Shown piece by piece: positions 19,344 through 53,997 of a stretch of DNA of 64,000 nt. Numbering within the stretch: position 1 is the first letter of the stretch; each line of letters begins with the position of its first letter. The notes under the pieces were generated by a model. It was not told where the DNA came from and did not search any database. It saw nothing but the letters and a program-made list of their open reading frames with translations. The stretch covers positions 1-64,000 of IMG/VR virus record IMGVR_UViG_3300036851_000157; one strand, written 5' to 3'. Both the position numbers and the translations under genes were made by a program. This stretch comes from a virus.

Positions 19344-19577
19344 TCAAGGTCTCGTCACGATGATGTGTTTCCCTGTGACGTTCTCCTCAACAATTTCTCT
19401 CATTGCTTGCTCCCGATCAGCCTCTTGGTCTGCATCACTCAATGAATCAGAAGTAATGATGATCCTATCGAGGAGACCGGGTGTGTTGTATCCATGAACC
19501 ATGTCCCAGATGAACCACTCATCCCAGTTATCGAACGGATCGAAAGGATTATCTGATGTACTAAGCATTATAGCCAT
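19344..19577 (-). CDS. Small acidic protein paired with the RNA-polymerase-like gene
   Basis: 77 residues, ATG overlapping the stop of the 938-residue gene. MLSTSDNPFDPFDNWDEWF, HGYNTPG and SDSLSDADQE form a motif set that I recognise from small phage proteins neighbouring the same large protein in other phages. Translational coupling suggests a functional pair. Biochemical role unknown. Confidence 0.75.
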   Translation of the reverse strand: MAIMLSTSDNPFDPFDNWDEWFIWDMVHGYNTPGLLDRIIITSDSLSDADQEADREQAMREIVEENVTGKHIIVTRP

Positions 19578-22393
19578 CAGCTTTCTCCTCTCAAGCTGTT
19601 CTTCAGTGTAGTGAGTGATACACCCAGAGCTTGTGCTACCTCAGCCTGTGTGTGACCAGAGGCCAGCATGGCCTTGGCTCTAGGAAGTTGTGAACCACCC
19701 ATCAAAGTAGTCTGACGTGGGGTGGCTAGCTTCTTCACAGTCTCAAGGTCTGCATTGTCCAAGATAGACTTCAGCTTGCTAGGACTGATGGCTCTTGCTT
19801 GGATGGCGGTCCATTCTTGAGGGGTGATTTGGATCTGGTCCTTGCCAGCACCAACTCTAGACCTCGCCTGCTGTAGTGCTTGGAACTTCACCCTCTTGAT
19901 CTGGGCAGCATCCATGTCTGGAAGATCTACCCTCTTCTGAGCCAATGTAGTATTGGCATAGATCTGAGCTTGACGTTCCAAAGGTCTGTTCTGGATGGCC
20001 TGATTAAGCTTGGCCGTCAGAGACTTGACCTCTTGGTCATAAGCACGAGTAGCAGAAGGCACAGCTTTGTCAAGCTTGGTGTTGACAAGTTCTTTCCTTG
20101 CCAGGTTTGCCAATGCCTTCATCCTGTTGCTGTGTTCAGCATACGCCGCTTCGATGCTAGTGCCAGGTTTTTCCTTAGATCCACCTGATGTCAAAGCAAA
20201 CGCGTCCTCTGCAATCTCTAGCTTCTTGCGTGGCGCAGTTGGGAAGCGAGTCTTCCCCGTGACAGGATCAACCCATTCCTCACCTTTTGGTACCAAGATC
20301 CTTCGACCTGTGATTGGATCAATGCCGCGCTGCTTGACAGCACGAGCTTGCCTATCTACAGAGCCGGCCCTAGAGATCAAGGTTGACGCACCGCCAGCCG
20401 CTTGTCCTCCAGGTCGAGGTTGATACTTCTGTTGAAGGGCCTTGATGCCGTTGTCAATCTCTGATGCCTTGTAATCCAAGGAATGCTTCTCAGCATCAAT
20501 AACAACCATAGAGTGTTTGACAGCACGAGCAAGTTCATCGTTGCTGGCTCCACGAATCGTCATGTCAGTGATGAGATTTGACACCTTACCCATGTGTTGC
20601 TGCTTGCCTGAGGGAGAAGTCTTTCCTGGCGTGCCATCGGGCTTTACCCCATAATCGATCTTGCTGGCTTTAGCATCCCAACGTCCACCATCAATAGTCT
20701 TCATTCCATCGTAAGGAGGATACTCCCTTTGTGGATCAAAGTGCTTCAATTCTTCCAATGAAGGAGAGCTCTTAATGGTTGTTCCTGGTCGCTGCGGAAT
20801 GACAATGACAGAATCTCCATCAAAGTCAGCTCCCGACAACTTTGCTGCTACCTTGGGGTTGATGCCGATTGCGTCAGGCGGATGCTCACCAAACGCCTCT
20901 CTTGCAAGCTTGTGCCTGTTGTTGACAGTCAGCTCTGGAATCTCGAAGGTTCCGCCATGGGGGTAGCGGATAAGAACTACGCGATCGCCGTTTTTGTACG
21001 TCGGTGCGTAGACCTCCGTCTCTTTCATCGTTGGAATGGGGAGGATGACACGAGACGCCTGGCCCGGAAGAGCTGCTGCTTTTAGATGGACAGCCGACGA
21101 ATCCGCGCCATCCGCAAAGGACTCGAGAAGCTTCGCTCGAACTGCCGGATTGGTGAGTTGCATGATCTCGTCAAGCTTTTCGCGTTCTGCATCGTAAGTT
21201 GCCTGCAGTTGGCGCCTTGCGAGAGTCGGGCTCTGCTTCGACAGAAATTGAGACGACAAGTTATCGGACCAAGTATCCCAATTACCTTCTTCGTTGATCT
21301 TGTTCATCACAGAAGTGACTTTACCGGTTTTCTCGTCAATGACCTGTCCACCATTCGGCCTGATCTGTGCACCAAAGGGGTTATCACTGTCGATCGTTCC
21401 GTCGTCCTTCTTCTTGAGCTCCTTCATGACATCGATCTTGCTGCCACCAGGGTTCTTGTTGGTGTTAAACTGAAGATCTACACCCTTCGGCATATCTGGC
21501 TTGTAGACGGCCATCCCTTTGAGATAGTGCGTGCCGTCGACCATGATTCGAACCTGGGCATAATGTGCTGATCCAAGTGAGACATCTTTGACACCAGGCC
21601 TGACATAAATGACACCGTCTGCCTCCTTGCCTCCTTGATCTGCGTAAATGATGCCAACGCGTCGAGAAGAGATTGATAGAGGCGGTTTAATGCCAAGGAT
21701 AGTCTTTCCGTTATCCTTCGAGAATTTTCCAAGAGCGTCGAGCTGTTGGATTTCTCCTTTTCGAGCATTGAGCTCCTTGTATGTCGTGCCGGGCGGTGTG
21801 AGAACACGGATCGTGGTCTTGTTACCTGGTGCAGTGCCGAGTTGGTCGACCTGTACTTTGTGGACCATGTATCCCTTTTCTTTTAGCACCGCTACTGCCG
21901 CCTTGAGGCGAGACTCAGCGATACCAAGGTGTTGTTCCACGCCAGTTCCGATGTCGATGAAACGCTTAGATGCAACACCCTCTTCCAACATCCGAGAAAC
22001 GTTGTGAAGAGCATCGATCTTCGCGCGAGCGTCATCAGCAAGCAGCGAACGAATCGTTGATTCCTTCGACTTGGTACCGAACATCTTCTCCGCAATAGCC
22101 GTGTGTGACCATCCTTGATCGCGAAGCTTCTGAGCTTGATGGATCTGCTGCTGCTTTTGTTGAGCCTTGGCAATTGTCCTAGCGGCACGGTATTCGGTAG
22201 TGCTGATACCGACCATCTTACAAGCCTCGGTAATGGACATATTGCCCTCGGACTTAATCTTGTCGAAGTACGCCAAGAACTCGCGATTTCTCACATTCTC
22301 GGTGCTACCTGAACCCCAAGGATAGCGGCCCGACCTACGAAGGATGCCGTAGTGAGCCAGATAGTCATCTTTTTCAATGAGCTCGCTCACCAT
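19577..22393 (-). CDS. Two-barrel RNA-polymerase-like protein with HTH segments
   Basis: 938 residues. N-terminus YLAHYGILRRSGRYPWGSG followed by two HTH-like stretches (~52-75 and ~90-118). Residues ~245-315 (VGIIYADQGG, LKGMAVY, GVDLQFNTNK) resemble the lysine-bearing first double-psi barrel, and 476-533 (RYPHGGTFEIPEL, then GADFDGDSVIVIP) resemble the beta-prime barrel with the DFDGD metal-binding motif at 523-527. This is the signature of single-chain polymerases such as YonO, crAss-phage RNAP and QDE-1. A further HTH (HTQAEVAQALGVSLTTLKNSL minus a few residues) closes the protein. Likely a phage transcriptase or a relative that has kept the fold. Confidence 0.65.
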   Translation of the reverse strand: MVSELIEKDDYLAHYGILRRSGRYPWGSGSTENVRNREFLAYFDKIKSEGNMSITEACKMVGISTTEYRAARTIAKAQQKQQQIHQAQKLRDQGWSHTAIAEKMFGTKSKESTIRSLLADDARAKIDALHNVSRMLEEGVASKRFIDIGTGVEQHLGIAESRLKAAVAVLKEKGYMVHKVQVDQLGTAPGNKTTIRVLTPPGTTYKELNARKGEIQQLDALGKFSKDNGKTILGIKPPLSISSRRVGIIYADQGGKEADGVIYVRPGVKDVSLGSAHYAQVRIMVDGTHYLKGMAVYKPDMPKGVDLQFNTNKNPGGSKIDVMKELKKKDDGTIDSDNPFGAQIRPNGGQVIDEKTGKVTSVMNKINEEGNWDTWSDNLSSQFLSKQSPTLARRQLQATYDAEREKLDEIMQLTNPAVRAKLLESFADGADSSAVHLKAAALPGQASRVILPIPTMKETEVYAPTYKNGDRVVLIRYPHGGTFEIPELTVNNRHKLAREAFGEHPPDAIGINPKVAAKLSGADFDGDSVIVIPQRPGTTIKSSPSLEELKHFDPQREYPPYDGMKTIDGGRWDAKASKIDYGVKPDGTPGKTSPSGKQQHMGKVSNLITDMTIRGASNDELARAVKHSMVVIDAEKHSLDYKASEIDNGIKALQQKYQPRPGGQAAGGASTLISRAGSVDRQARAVKQRGIDPITGRRILVPKGEEWVDPVTGKTRFPTAPRKKLEIAEDAFALTSGGSKEKPGTSIEAAYAEHSNRMKALANLARKELVNTKLDKAVPSATRAYDQEVKSLTAKLNQAIQNRPLERQAQIYANTTLAQKRVDLPDMDAAQIKRVKFQALQQARSRVGAGKDQIQITPQEWTAIQARAISPSKLKSILDNADLETVKKLATPRQTTLMGGSQLPRAKAMLASGHTQAEVAQALGVSLTTLKNSLRGES

Positions 22394-24020: not shown

Positions 24021-24250
24021 ACAACTCCTCTTAGAAGTTTTGAGCGCCGAACATAAACGGCGTCTACACTACGATCAAGCTTTAACGACACTTGCGTAAT
24101 GTCGAAAGGCTCAGTCATTATGAGTAGATCCTCGTCGGCTCCCCACCGCCTCCTTGAGCCGGGTCCTGACTTAGGTTTTGCCCCGCGATCAATCATTCGA
24201 GCTCTTGAGGCGCGATTGTGGTTTTTACGCTTTGCACCTTTACTCGGCAT
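24017..24250 (-). CDS. Small HTH/SANT-like DNA-binding protein
   Basis: 77 residues. Very basic N-terminus (KRKNHNRASRARMIDRG), then RRRWGADEDLLIM, FDITQVSLKLDRSVDAVYVRR, a three-helix Myb/SANT-like pattern with the conserved W and acidic first helix. Probably a small regulator. ATGA overlap with neighbours shows operon membership. Confidence 0.6.
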   Translation of the reverse strand: MPSKGAKRKNHNRASRARMIDRGAKPKSGPGSRRRWGADEDLLIMTEPFDITQVSLKLDRSVDAVYVRRSKLLRGVV

Positions 24251-34413: not shown

Positions 34414-34443
34414 GGTTCTCCTTCTTACAGTTGGGGTCTTTTC

Positions 34444-34613: not shown

Positions 34614-34718
34614 TCAGCGGTTCTTGATGTACAGCACGATGCGGGAAGCGTTGTTGCACTGAGCGACGTACTGGTTGTAGTCGACTCGGGCAGCAAGCAT
34701 TCGCTTGGTGAGGTTCAT
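34614..34718 (-). CDS. 34-residue cassette peptide
   Basis: MNLTKRMLAARVDYNQYVAQ... ending VLYIKNR, with AAGGAGA upstream, a promoter at 34751 and a terminator downstream. The complete expression signals make this tiny gene credible. Basic and helical; function unknown. Confidence 0.65.
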   Translation of the reverse strand: MNLTKRMLAARVDYNQYVAQCNNASRIVLYIKNR

Positions 34719-34750
34719 TTCTTCTCCTTGTTGGGTGTCTATGGGGGTCT

Positions 34751-34775
34751 ATTATGGGCGTTGTAATTCTTGCGA
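34751..34775 (-). promoter_or_regulatory. Phage cassette promoter
   Basis: TCGC-N15-CATAAT, 33 bases before ATG 34718. Confidence 0.65.
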
Positions 34776-34816
34776 GGGGGTAGAGATTTGGACGCCAGTC
34801 ACGGCCCTCTACCCCC
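34776..34816 (-). terminator. Terminator hairpin
   Basis: Ten-pair stem GGGGGTAGAG / CTCTACCCCC, immediately followed by the TCGC element of the next promoter. A second hairpin (11 pairs, 34834-34871) starts right after the stop codon of the 25-residue gene. Confidence 0.55.
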
Positions 34817-34871
34817 TCTATTAAGAGGGATTCTTCACAAAAGGTTTTCTCATCTCAGTGCCTTTTGTGAA

Positions 34872-34949
34872 CTATCTCTTGGGCACCACCAACAGGATTG
34901 CGATGGTCGAAGCAACCAGCGAGATGACACTCATCGTGTAGGCGGACAT
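34872..34949 (-). CDS. 25-residue membrane peptide
   Basis: MSAYTMSVISLVASTIAILL plus VVPKR; GAGGAGG seven bases before the ATG. Almost wholly a single membrane helix. It lies at the 3' side of the large non-coding RNA and would share its transcript. Function unknown. Confidence 0.6.
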   Translation of the reverse strand: MSAYTMSVISLVASTIAILLVVPKR

Positions 34950-34984
34950 CGTACTCACCTCCTCTTTCTCTAACTGTAGACAAA

Positions 34985-35978
34985 TAAAGGGGCGCAAGGC
35001 AGTTCCAGTCTCGGATGATAACTGCGGCTGTCATTTAAGACCGAGCGAATGCGCTTCCCCACGCCGCTGATCCCCACAAAGTATAGGTGTTCCTGGGCTG
35101 ACTCAACGACTAAAATGCCGAGGCTACCAGCCAGTAGCTTTAAGGTTAACATAGCAGGAACGTGCGTTTATATGCAGCAAGACCTCGCCAGGCCTTATGG
35201 GATTCGGCAATTCGTGTCCTCACCCATGGATAGTTCGCTACGCGTTCTACCCGCGTCTGTGTGAGCAGTTTAGTAGCCAGACATGCTCAGGTCTGATGGG
35301 ATTCGGGCCAACTCCCTCACCCATGGACACCGCTCGGCGGAACGGAGAAACGCCGTCACGGCACCCGCGTCTTCAGAGTACGCCGCCTATCCTCAAGAAT
35401 TTTACTCCCCGTCGTGTTTTTATTCACAAGAGAGAGCAAAGAAGAGGAAGCCTAGGACTTGTCAACGACGTACCCCGTCTAAAGAACAGCAAGTGGGGAC
35501 GAGTCAACCCCTAAAGACTTATCTGAAGTCACCTTGTTGTTCGGCTTGAGTGCGGCTTTTAGCGTCACGGCTTCTCACCCGTGTACCAGTCATCCGCCAG
35601 GACTGTGCCCCGGTGTAGTTTTATTTAACAACCCGATCAAACCAGTTTACTCGTTTAAGAGGACTTAAAGATCACCGATTTGTCGTAGCGGAATATCAGG
35701 TCAACCTCTCCTTGCTCTGGCCATGCTTAATCAGGAGGTTCGTTACTGCATGGTAAAACCTGATGCTCAAGTAGGTGCCTGAATTGTTATCCCGGTACAG
35801 GCTCCCGGGGTGGGTGCCTCCAACGCCGACGTAAATGCCGGCCGCTGAAGAGGACTGCCATCCGACTGCTTCGCCGTCCTTGGCAGAGGACGCTTATCGC
35901 AAATGAGTCACCTATAACACGCTGCCTCATGGCCTTATTAGTACCCACTTCTTCAATCCTCGTAAGGATTGAAGAAAT
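34985..35978 (-). ncRNA. Large structured non-coding RNA candidate (GOLLD/ROOL style)
   Basis: About 1 kb without a plausible gene, flanked by packed genes. Four H-type pseudoknot candidates: 35777-35809 (GCCTG/CAGGC with CCCGG/CCGGG); 35855-35891 (CTGCCA/TGGCAG with GTCCT/AGGAC); 35703-35753 (AACCTCTCC/GGAGGTT with CCATGC/GCATGG), enclosed by ATCAGGT/ACCTGAT (35695-35764); and 34999-35045 at the 3' end (GCAGTT/AACTGC with CTCGG/CCGAG). A motif ATGGG-TGA...GAAT-CCCAT occurs twice (35197-35227, 35296-35324). Helices at 35825-35842 and 35181-35194 contain G-U pairs only when read on the minus strand, giving the orientation. A 12-bp perfect hairpin (35949-35976) marks the 5' side. Size and context resemble the ornate phage RNAs GOLLD and ROOL; identity unproven. 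Confidence 0.65.
35949..35976 (-). other. Perfect 12-bp hairpin at 5' edge of the large RNA
   Basis: TTCTTCAATCCT, tetraloop TACG (coding strand), AGGATTGAAGAA. It starts three bases after the stop of the preceding gene but is not followed by a T-tract, so it looks more like a processing site or the first helix of the non-coding RNA than a terminator. Confidence 0.6.
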
Positions 35979-36182
35979 CTACTTCGGGCAACCGTAGTTG
36001 CTGTTGTGCGCCAAAACCTTCACATTGGATCGTGGGTCGGCGTAGATCTTGCAGCCGTACCGGCAGTCGCTCAGAGCGAACTCGTACATTCGAGCCACAA
36101 CTGTCGGGTCCGGGTGAAGTGCCTCACTGGAACCCACCTCGTAGGTCACTTCGATCTTCTCGTCAATGTCAATCCAGTCCAT
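35979..36182 (-). CDS. Small hypothetical protein
   Basis: 67 residues from ATG 36182 (GGGAG upstream; a longer frame to 36224 lacks one). MDWIDIDEKIEVTYEVGSSE, ARMYEFALSDCRYGCKIYAD; three to four cysteines. Last gene before the large non-coding RNA. Confidence 0.6.
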   Translation of the reverse strand: MDWIDIDEKIEVTYEVGSSEALHPDPTVVARMYEFALSDCRYGCKIYADPRSNVKVLAHNSNYGCPK

Positions 36183-36190
36183 GTGTCTCC

Positions 36191-36454
36191 CTAACTCCAG
36201 GATCGCAAGTTCTCCTCGCCCCATCCATGACCTCGCATCTGAGTCCAGGGGATCTTACGCCTACGATTCTTCTTGCTTTTCATGCGCTTAGCCCATCGAG
36301 CCTGCTTGGGACCAACGCCCACCTCTGCGTAGCTCCATCTGAAGTCTCGCGGCACAGAGAACGTGCTACGGCCCTTGTAGGCGTACTCGAACTCCTCGGC
36401 TCCGACCTCACGCAGTCGAACCCAAGAAGGTTTGGTTTTGTCGGTTTTCGACAT
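36191..36454 (-). CDS. Small basic protein
   Basis: 87 residues, GAAGGAGG upstream. SWVRLREVGAEEFEYAYKG, FSVPRDFRWSYAEVG and a basic KRMKSKKNRRRKIPW segment. Preceded by a five-codon open frame (36469-36483: MLFT stop) with its own strong ribosome site. Function unknown. Confidence 0.6.
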   Translation of the reverse strand: MSKTDKTKPSWVRLREVGAEEFEYAYKGRSTFSVPRDFRWSYAEVGVGPKQARWAKRMKSKKNRRRKIPWTQMRGHGWGEENLRSWS

Positions 36455-50692: not shown

Positions 50693-50717
50693 ATTAGAGG
50701 CTGTGTTTCATTTGCGA
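50693..50717 (-). promoter_or_regulatory. Phage cassette promoter
   Basis: TCGC-N15-TCTAAT, 26 bases before ATG 50667. Confidence 0.65.
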
Positions 50718-50782
50718 GACGGGAAGTACGGCGAGACCCCAATCCAGCCAGTGAACTCCCCGCCTCGCAAATATCCGACCGA

Positions 50783-51550
50783 TTACTCGGTCGTCCCCCC
50801 GGGCTCTTCGGCACCCTCGGCCATCTTACGACGCTGACGGATGTTTAGAAGCATTGTCGGGATGTTCTTTCCCTGCCGCGCTTCTGCGTAAAGCGTTTCG
50901 AACTCATTCCGATTCATCTCTAGAAGTTGGTCGGGGGTGTAGTCCGACCAGGTCTTCTTGACTGGATTATCCATGTAGAGAGGATCGCCATGATTCTGCT
51001 CAGGGCTGTCGATCGACGGAATTCCATCGTCGCCTGGATAGACCGGAGCCTCGTTGGCGACGTTGGTCAGAGGGTTCTCCAGATCCGGCACAGGACTGAG
51101 ATCGGCACGCTGGCTCTTCTCGTAGTCCTTCTGAACCACTTCAGGCCAGATCTTGGTCATGAAATAATTCGCACGATCGGTGTTCTCGAAGAGGTACAGC
51201 ACGAAGGCATTGAAGGCGCCTGTCGAAACGAATCGACGCCAAATATCCCCGCTTCCGTGCGGATCGTCCTTGTCGAACTGCTCACCGTCAGGGCCTTGCG
51301 AACGAACTCCGTAGGAGTGCTTGATGAGAACCTTGACGATATCGAGCATCTCACGCTTCTCAGGAGCGGTAAGTTCGCGCACAAGAGTCTTATCGTCGCC
51401 GATAACCTCGTCCTGGAAACGTTCCAAGCGCTCCTTGAGAACCTCCAGCTCCATGTCGTGCGAGACCTCGAACTCGTCAAGGTGGAAATGAAGCGTTCGA
51501 GAAACCGGATTACCGCTTGGACTCTTGAACGAGATGAACTGCTTGATCAT
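50783..51550 (-). CDS. Possible tail-assembly-chaperone-like protein
   Basis: 255 residues. FHLDEFEVSHDMELEVLKER, ELTAPEKREMLDIVKVLIKH, GDIWRRFVSTGAFNAFVLYL and ENTDRANYFMTKIWP resemble phage tail-assembly chaperone family proteins (a STGAFNAF segment plus RANxFM). If correct, a tail gene sits in the early cassette region. Family assignment is from motif memory only. Confidence 0.45.
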   Translation of the reverse strand: MIKQFISFKSPSGNPVSRTLHFHLDEFEVSHDMELEVLKERLERFQDEVIGDDKTLVRELTAPEKREMLDIVKVLIKHSYGVRSQGPDGEQFDKDDPHGSGDIWRRFVSTGAFNAFVLYLFENTDRANYFMTKIWPEVVQKDYEKSQRADLSPVPDLENPLTNVANEAPVYPGDDGIPSIDSPEQNHGDPLYMDNPVKKTWSDYTPDQLLEMNRNEFETLYAEARQGKNIPTMLLNIRQRRKMAEGAEEPGGTTE

Positions 51551-53874: not shown

Positions 53875-53972
53875 GGATGGATCTCCTTAGCTCTTCTAAC
53901 ATGGACAGAAAATATAAGAGAAGCTGTTCGTACCCGTATAGGGTGATCAGGGTAGACTACTACCGTCTTCTC

Positions 53973-53997
53973 ATTAGAGGGGTTGTATTTCTTGCGA
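53973..53997 (-). promoter_or_regulatory. Phage cassette promoter
   Basis: TCGC-N15-TCTAAT, unusually far (about 100 bases) from the first gene at 53874, leaving a long 5' leader that may be structured. Confidence 0.6.

What the first reader, a model, noticed from the sequence alone, without database searches (positions are those of the whole stretch)
34985..35978. A ~1-kb non-coding RNA packed with pseudoknots
In a genome where genes overlap, about 1 kb has no plausible ORF. It contains at least four H-type pseudoknots built from 5-9 bp complementary segments (35777-35809, 35855-35891, 35703-35753, 34999-35045) and a repeated internal-loop motif. Two hairpins have G-U pairs that exist only on the minus strand. 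This is the behaviour of ornate giant RNAs such as GOLLD and ROOL, which are phage-borne; the sequence may be a member or a new class.
Basis: partly seen in the sequence, partly recalled or inferred. Interest (0 to 1): 0.93.

Follow-up and report, generated by a model that had tools for sequence, protein, structure and literature searches.

The report
A 1-kb structured phage non-coding RNA
An uncultured phage, related to viruses of soil bacteria such as Streptomyces and Gordonia, carries a one-kilobase structured RNA that codes for no protein and ends in a small RNA module shared, unannotated, by about a hundred known phages, where the module's loop looks built to pair with the starts of many phage messenger RNAs.

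Summary
The observation largely holds: 34988-35978 is a real structured RNA, read on the minus strand. It has no conserved frame. Its minus strand folds better than shuffles (z -2.8; -3.9 in a 95%-identical relative), its plus strand hardly (-0.3, -1.7). A divergent homologue (L002) keeps its blocks in order and shows compensatory changes in seven helices; L003 adds one. Two of the four pseudoknots are supported; one is undecided and one is better read as helices P1/P4 of a 3' domain. No Rfam family matches, so it is not GOLLD, ROOL, OLE or HEARO.

Not foreseen: the last ~110 nt are a diverged copy of a small RNA element (covariance model, E=4e-5) that I found in roughly 100 Streptomyces, Gordonia and Rhodococcus phage records and about 40 viral contigs, typically after the tail-assembly-chaperone gene. 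Its helices covary strongly. Its apical loop (UAGGGGUCUC) is complementary to the leader GAGACCCCUA before many small genes in those phages, and loops match their own phage's leaders better than others' (6/5000 permutations). I infer a base-pairing regulator. In the window that loop lies in a separate hairpin (50709-50773); what the 1-kb RNA itself does is not shown.

The parts
34988..35978 (-). the structured non-coding RNA as a whole (5' end at 35978 and 3' end at 34988 are inferred limits)
   Evidence: no conserved ORF; homologues L003 (about 95%) and L002 (blocks of 82-90%, same order); minus-strand folding energy
35949..35976 (-). 5' hairpin directly after the stop codon of the upstream gene
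   Evidence: 11-12 bp perfect; in L002 a hairpin of different sequence in the same place with 4 doubly changed pairs
35855..35892 (-). pseudoknot a (stem CGUCC/GGACG; loop pairing CUGCCA/UGGCAG)
   Evidence: two doubly changed pairs in L002, loop pairing invariant
35777..35809 (-). pseudoknot b (CCCGG/CCGGG and GCCUG/CAGGC, conserved loop UAACAAUU)
   Evidence: two doubly changed pairs and one C-G to U-G change in L002
35703..35753 (-). possible third pseudoknot, absent from L002
   Evidence: only in window and L003; undecided
35627..35684 (-). helix GACAAAUCGGU/AUCGGGUUGUU closing a conserved block
   Evidence: two one-sided compatible changes in L002
35484..35542 (-). three-way junction: outer helix plus two hairpins
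   Evidence: inner hairpin GACUU/AAGUC becomes ACCUU/AAGGU in L002 (two double changes); GGGG/CCCC becomes GGAG/CUCC in L003
35267..35373 (-). most conserved block, 89% identical to L002 over 109 nt
   Evidence: hairpin CAGAC/GUCUG becomes CAGUC/GACUG in L002
35278..35327 (-). repeat copy 1: hairpin AUGGG-UGA-GG..CC-GAAU-CCCAU followed by a second hairpin
   Evidence: conserved in L003 and L002
35179..35230 (-). repeat copy 2 of the same two hairpins
   Evidence: conserved in L003, absent from L002
34978..35085 (-). 3' domain: diverged member of the small RNA family (P0 GGGG/CCCC, P1 GAUC-AGC/GCU-C-GGUC, core UUAAAUGACAGCCG, P4 CAGUU/AACUG, UGCGCCCC)
   Evidence: covariance model R1: 24.5 bits, E=4e-5 over the whole window, the only significant hit; L003 6.7e-7, L002 4.4e-6
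34872..34949 (-). 25-aa hydrophobic ORF directly after the RNA, with a Shine-Dalgarno sequence
   Evidence: about 90% identical DNA in L002, changes synonymous or conservative (read and the sequence)
35979..36224 (-). gene upstream of the RNA (phrog_25998, unknown function)
50709..50773 (-). hairpin after the tail-assembly-chaperone gene whose loop UUGGGGUCUC (50733-50742) fits the window's CCCCAAC leaders
   Evidence: same loop in L058; canonical phages have UAGGGGUCUC with CCCCUA leaders
50783..51550 (-). tail assembly chaperone gene (PF23803); in related phages the small RNA element lies directly after it
34428..34443 (-). example of a window leader (GAAAAGACCCCAACUG), complementary over 9 nt to the loop at 50733-50742

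Best explanation
The region encodes, on the minus strand, a multi-domain structured non-coding RNA of about 1 kb. Its 3' domain is a diverged member of a small RNA family widespread in phages of Streptomyces, Gordonia and Rhodococcus. SHOWN by comparison: the structure, its strand, the homologues, and membership of the 3' domain. SHOWN for the family: a closed domain (P0, P1, P2, an invariant core UUAAACGACAGCCG) whose P2 loop is complementary to the leader that precedes many small phage genes, with loops and leaders matched within phages. INFERRED: the family works by base pairing to the 5' ends of these mRNAs just upstream of the Shine-Dalgarno sequence, so that one RNA regulates a whole set of phage mRNAs. 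INFERRED for the window: this lineage split the ancestral element. The pairing loop stayed as a hairpin behind the tail-assembly-chaperone gene (50709-50773), and the core domain now ends a larger RNA that has gained further domains and belongs to the same post-transcriptional control system (as protein-binding platform or scaffold, and possibly as cis-control of the 25-aa peptide that follows).
For: Homologues in order with compensatory changes: 17 doubly changed pairs across eight helices (seven helices from L002, one from L003). Minus-strand-only folding signal. 3' domain hit by R1 at E=4e-5 in the window, 6.7e-7 and 4.4e-6 in L003 and L002. Family: 37 sequences, 91% of cells paired against 30-50% when slid, 11 of 16 pairs with double changes; outer helix P0: own flanks pair better than permuted ones, 0/300. 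Distribution: 64 and 70 phage records with two queries, about 40 viral contigs. Loop against leader: summed match 272 in 29 phages against 132 for shuffled loops (maximum 152) and 258 for loops paired with other phages' leaders (6/5000 as high); in window and L058 loop UUGGGGUC goes with CCCCAA leaders where other phages have UAGGGGUC with CCCCUA.
Against: Complementarity of the 1-kb RNA itself to the window's leaders is at chance (114 against 115), and its P2 loop (CGUGGGGAAG) lacks the seed. An automatic count of compensatory changes on a crude alignment was only weakly above chance (80/500 for L002, 16/500 for L003); the 17 come from helices that I aligned by hand. Only two homologues exist in the collections searched. 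L002 has protein ORFs between conserved blocks, which argues against one compact fold. No transcript data; where the leaders start is inferred from sequence. L057, a relative, keeps the hairpin but its leaders do not fit it well.
Confidence: 0.5

Rival explanations
1. The region is a chain of separate structured elements (UTR or intergenic RNAs) in a polycistronic phage mRNA, each acting in cis on neighbouring genes such as the 25-aa peptide, rather than one functional RNA.
For: L002 has three ORFs between the conserved blocks; no clear promoter or terminator borders the RNA; genes lie close on both sides on the same strand; L061 carries two tandem copies of the element in a 608-nt gap.
Against: Order, both ends and all main blocks are kept between window and L002; the 5' hairpin directly follows the stop codon of unrelated upstream genes in the two phages, as for one unit.
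Confidence: 0.25
2. It is a giant ornate RNA that works like GOLLD or ROOL, assembling into an RNA-only cage or multimer.
For: Size, phage origin, several pseudoknots; like GOLLD, a conserved 3' part and a variable 5' part (GOLLD description in PMC12286853).
Against: No Rfam match; no tRNAs nearby; ORFs interrupt the L002 version; the 3' domain belongs to a ~110-nt stand-alone family.
Confidence: 0.12
3. The DNA itself is the functional element (origin, packaging or regulatory DNA) or the region is a decayed gene cluster, and the RNA signal is incidental.
For: Folding energy in plain 200-nt windows is ordinary.
Against: The folding signal is on one strand only; compensatory changes include one-sided changes to G-U; a covariance model built on other phages finds the 3' domain.
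Confidence: 0.06

Closest known systems
GOLLD RNA (Rfam)
   Same: phage-borne, near 1 kb, pseudoknots, conserved 3' part with variable 5' part
   Different: no covariance-model match at E up to 10, no tRNA neighbours, 3' domain belongs to another small family, ORFs between blocks in L002
ROOL RNA (Rfam)
   Same: phage-borne, large, multiple pseudoknots, no known protein partner
   Different: no covariance-model match
Base-pairing bacterial small RNAs (trans-acting antisense RNAs that bind mRNA 5' leaders)
   Same: for the small family: a loop complementary to many mRNA leaders next to the Shine-Dalgarno sequence, co-varying with them
   Different: phage-encoded, closed by a P0 helix, with an invariant core; the window's 1-kb RNA has lost the seed
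HEARO RNA (HNH endonuclease-associated RNA)
   Same: large structured RNA that can have an embedded or adjacent ORF, as in L002
   Different: no Rfam match; the L002 ORF has no HNH match

Membership tests
GOLLD / ROOL / OLE / HEARO (Rfam) | match to the family covariance model | tested here: not met
   no match at gathering score in the window nor at E up to 10 for 34700-36200; the L002 homologue has only chance matches to other families
GOLLD / ROOL | location near tRNA islands (usual, not strict) | tested here: not met
   ARAGORN finds no tRNA in the 64-kb window
GOLLD / ROOL | RNA-only multimer or cage, abundant transcript | not testable with these tools
   needs RNA-seq, Northern blot, cryo-EM
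new small RNA family (tail-chaperone-downstream element) | covariance-model match of the 3' domain | tested here: met
   window 34978-35085 minus, 24.5 bits, E=4e-5; L003 and L002 independently
new small RNA family (tail-chaperone-downstream element) | core UUAAANGACAGCCG after P1 | tested here: met
   GUCUUAAAUGACAGCC at 35026-35041, the only exact match in the window
new small RNA family (tail-chaperone-downstream element) | UCCGGA before the 3' arm of P1 | tested here: not met
   missing in window, L003 and L002 (alignments): a diverged branch
new small RNA family (tail-chaperone-downstream element) | P2 loop complementary to own mRNA leaders | tested here: not met
   P2 loop is CGUGGGGAAG; complementarity of the 1-kb RNA to the leaders is at chance; the complementary loop is in a separate hairpin at 50709-50773
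new small RNA family (tail-chaperone-downstream element) | position directly after the tail-assembly-chaperone gene | tested here: not met
   chaperone gene at 50783-51550; the 1-kb RNA lies about 15 kb away

The most novel reading that the evidence does not exclude
A phage-wide RNA regulon: one small structured RNA, unannotated in about a hundred sequenced actinobacterial phages, recognises by base pairing a common 5' leader on ten or so phage mRNAs; in the window's lineage its core has been built into a 1-kb RNA of a new class.
Probability: 0.4. Interest if true: 0.85.

Novelty: new variant of a known kind. Interest (0 to 1): 0.7.

Why it matters
Large structured RNAs of phages are few, and those compared here (GOLLD, ROOL) have no settled function. 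This one matches no Rfam family, and its 3' domain links it to a small RNA family present in phages that are in laboratory collections (Gordonia, Streptomyces and Rhodococcus phages). The seed-leader matching gives a direct, cheap test of function, which giant RNAs such as GOLLD and ROOL have lacked. If the pairing holds, a whole set of phage genes is controlled post-transcriptionally by one RNA that annotation has overlooked.

Tried and rejected
Genome-wide search with the most conserved 17-mer: 50 bacterial hits, all chance matches of 17-33 nt. Search of 395 genomes of one bacterial class with the covariance model (none) and with the DNA (one 43-nt match, E=1.6e-4, judged chance). Automatic compensatory-change tests on crude alignments: weak. 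Complementarity of the 1-kb RNA itself to window leaders: none above chance. Additional diverged copies of the element inside the 1-kb RNA: none. Reading the fourth pseudoknot (34999-35045) as drawn: rejected in favour of P1/P4. The helix UUUAAG/CUUAAA (near 35650-35670) is not conserved in L002. Pattern hits L065, L066 and L131 judged chance (inside apparent coding sequence). Literature searches for this RNA or its leaders found nothing; the library lacks most subscription journals, and nothing outside it was searched.

Full report
Setting. The window is a 64.4-kb virus record with nearly all genes on the minus strand. Its DNA primase-polymerase is about 55% identical to those of Gordonia, Arthrobacter and Rhodococcus ReqiPepy6-like phages, and it has a polymerase of the kind annotated as RNA-dependent RNA polymerase in PHROGs (19577-22393). 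No near DNA relative is in the phage collection.

Observation. The region 34985-35978 holds the only long stretch on the coding strand without a credible ORF. Nothing in Rfam matches it, even at E=10. The minus strand folds 24 kcal/mol better than dinucleotide shuffles (z -2.83), the plus strand not (z -0.32); in L003 the values are -3.88 and -1.70. In 200-nt windows the energy is ordinary, so comparison is needed.

Homologues. Patterns from separate conserved blocks returned the same two other viral contigs: L003 (about 95% identical over the RNA) and L002, part of a 43-kb contig with an 88%-identical polymerase. L002 keeps the 5' hairpin, both pseudoknots, the three-way junction, the repeat hairpin (one copy) and the 3' domain, in the same order, and ends before the same 25-aa ORF. 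Helices compared by hand show 17 doubly changed pairs, 4 one-sided compatible changes and 6 gains or losses of a pair. The changes include a thorough rewriting of the 5' hairpin and of P4 in L002. One helix (GGGG/CCCC to GGAG/CUCC) changed between the close relatives window and L003. A blind count on a rough alignment was only weakly above chance (80/500 for L002, 16/500 for L003); I treat the helix evidence as good but not formal.

Insertions. Between conserved blocks L002 holds ORFs of 118, 62 and 53 aa. The N-terminal part of the 118-aa protein is 53% identical to a gene of the window at 24029-24250. The RNA therefore tolerates inserted genes between its domains, which suggests modules rather than one compact body.

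The 3' domain. The pattern CGGCTGTCNTTTAAGAC from the 3' end also hit two unrelated contigs, L067 and L068, in a structured intergenic stretch. Similarity searches with that stretch found it in 64 phage records (Streptomyces 44, Gordonia 16, Rhodococcus 4), and a Gordonia copy as query found 70 (Gordonia 55, Streptomyces 11, Rhodococcus 4). A pattern search of viral contigs gave about 40 contigs. In the records read it lies between two genes. The gene before it in Gordonia phage Perkunas and in ReqiPepy6 is the tail assembly chaperone PF23803. Thirty-seven sequences align into P0 (GGG/CCC), P1, P2 and the invariant stretches UCCGGA and AAACGACA. Eleven of 16 pairs have double changes, 91% of cells pair, and sliding the partners destroys this. 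The outer part of P0 is supported separately: own flanks pair better than permuted flanks, 0/300. A covariance model from these 37 sequences, which contain neither the window nor its two relatives, hits the window at 34978-35085 with E=4e-5 as its only significant match, and L003 and L002 in the corresponding place. The window's P1 carries a one-base bulge (GCU-C-GGUC) of a kind also seen in other members, such as L084 and L111. Rfam has nothing for this element either.

What the family may do. Related phages have about 8-10 copies, in the parts read, of a promoter-like sequence TCGCA-N-TACA-N-CCTATAATGAGACCCCTA followed by a Shine-Dalgarno sequence and a small gene. The P2 loop reads GUAGGGGUCUC, the reverse complement of GAGACCCCUAC. 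In 29 dereplicated phages the best loop-leader matches sum to 272, against 132 for shuffled loops (maximum 152 in 300). If leaders are exchanged between phages the sum falls to 258 on average and reaches 272 in only 6 of 5000 permutations, so loop and leader co-vary. L116 is the clearest case: loop GUGAAGGGGUCU, leader AGACCCCUUCAC. That the leader is transcribed from GAGACCCC on is inferred from the sequence and from where the complementarity ends; it was not measured.

The window's version. Window leaders often read ...CCCCAAC. Behind the window's own chaperone gene lies a hairpin (50709-50773) with the loop UUGGGGUCUC, shared with L058: loop and leader have changed together relative to the other phages. 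The 1-kb RNA carries the core of the family but not this loop, and its complementarity to the leaders is at chance. The most economical reading is that the ancestral element was split, the pairing loop staying behind the chaperone gene and the core being elaborated into the 1-kb RNA. L061 shows another route of growth: two diverged copies in tandem in a 608-nt gap (E 0.00062 and 0.018 in a search of that gap alone).

Verdict. A real, new, multi-domain phage RNA on the minus strand; not a member of GOLLD, ROOL, OLE or HEARO; its 3' domain belongs to a widespread and, as far as the searches here show, undescribed small RNA family with a likely base-pairing function. The function of the 1-kb RNA itself is inferred, not shown.

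Noticed in passing
L061:17275-17330: Pistol self-cleaving ribozyme above its Rfam gathering score in a related phage contig.
   Followed up: no
L061:4729-5336: 608-nt non-coding gap after the tail-chaperone gene with two diverged copies of the small RNA element and more structure around them.
   Followed up: partly
window 50709-50773: Long hairpin after the tail-chaperone gene with loop UUGGGGUCUC, matching the window's CCCCAAC leaders; same in L058, variant in L057.
   Followed up: partly
window 56060, 55354, 54716, 52078, 50716, 50414, 34774, 34467, 34131, 33300 (minus): Repeated promoter-like sequence TCGC[AG]-N-TACA-N-CCTMTAATGA before small genes, resembling the repeated leaders of ReqiPepy6 and Gordonia phages; possibly the promoter of the phage's own RNA polymerase.
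   Followed up: partly
L054:29786 and L054:36758 (ReqiPepy6): Two further places with AGGGGTCTC in a hairpin loop, one of them close to the cos end.
   Followed up: no
window 53880-53985 (minus): Promoter-like sequence followed by about 100 nt without an immediate start codon, conserved in L058 (GGTAGTAGTCTACCCTG); perhaps a structured leader or small RNA.
   Followed up: no
L002:3420-3776: 118-aa protein inserted between RNA blocks, its N-terminal part 53% identical to window 24029-24250 and its C-terminal part with CxxC-like motifs.
   Followed up: partly
window 34872-34949 (minus): Conserved 25-aa hydrophobic peptide directly after the RNA, with the look of a single membrane helix.
   Followed up: partly
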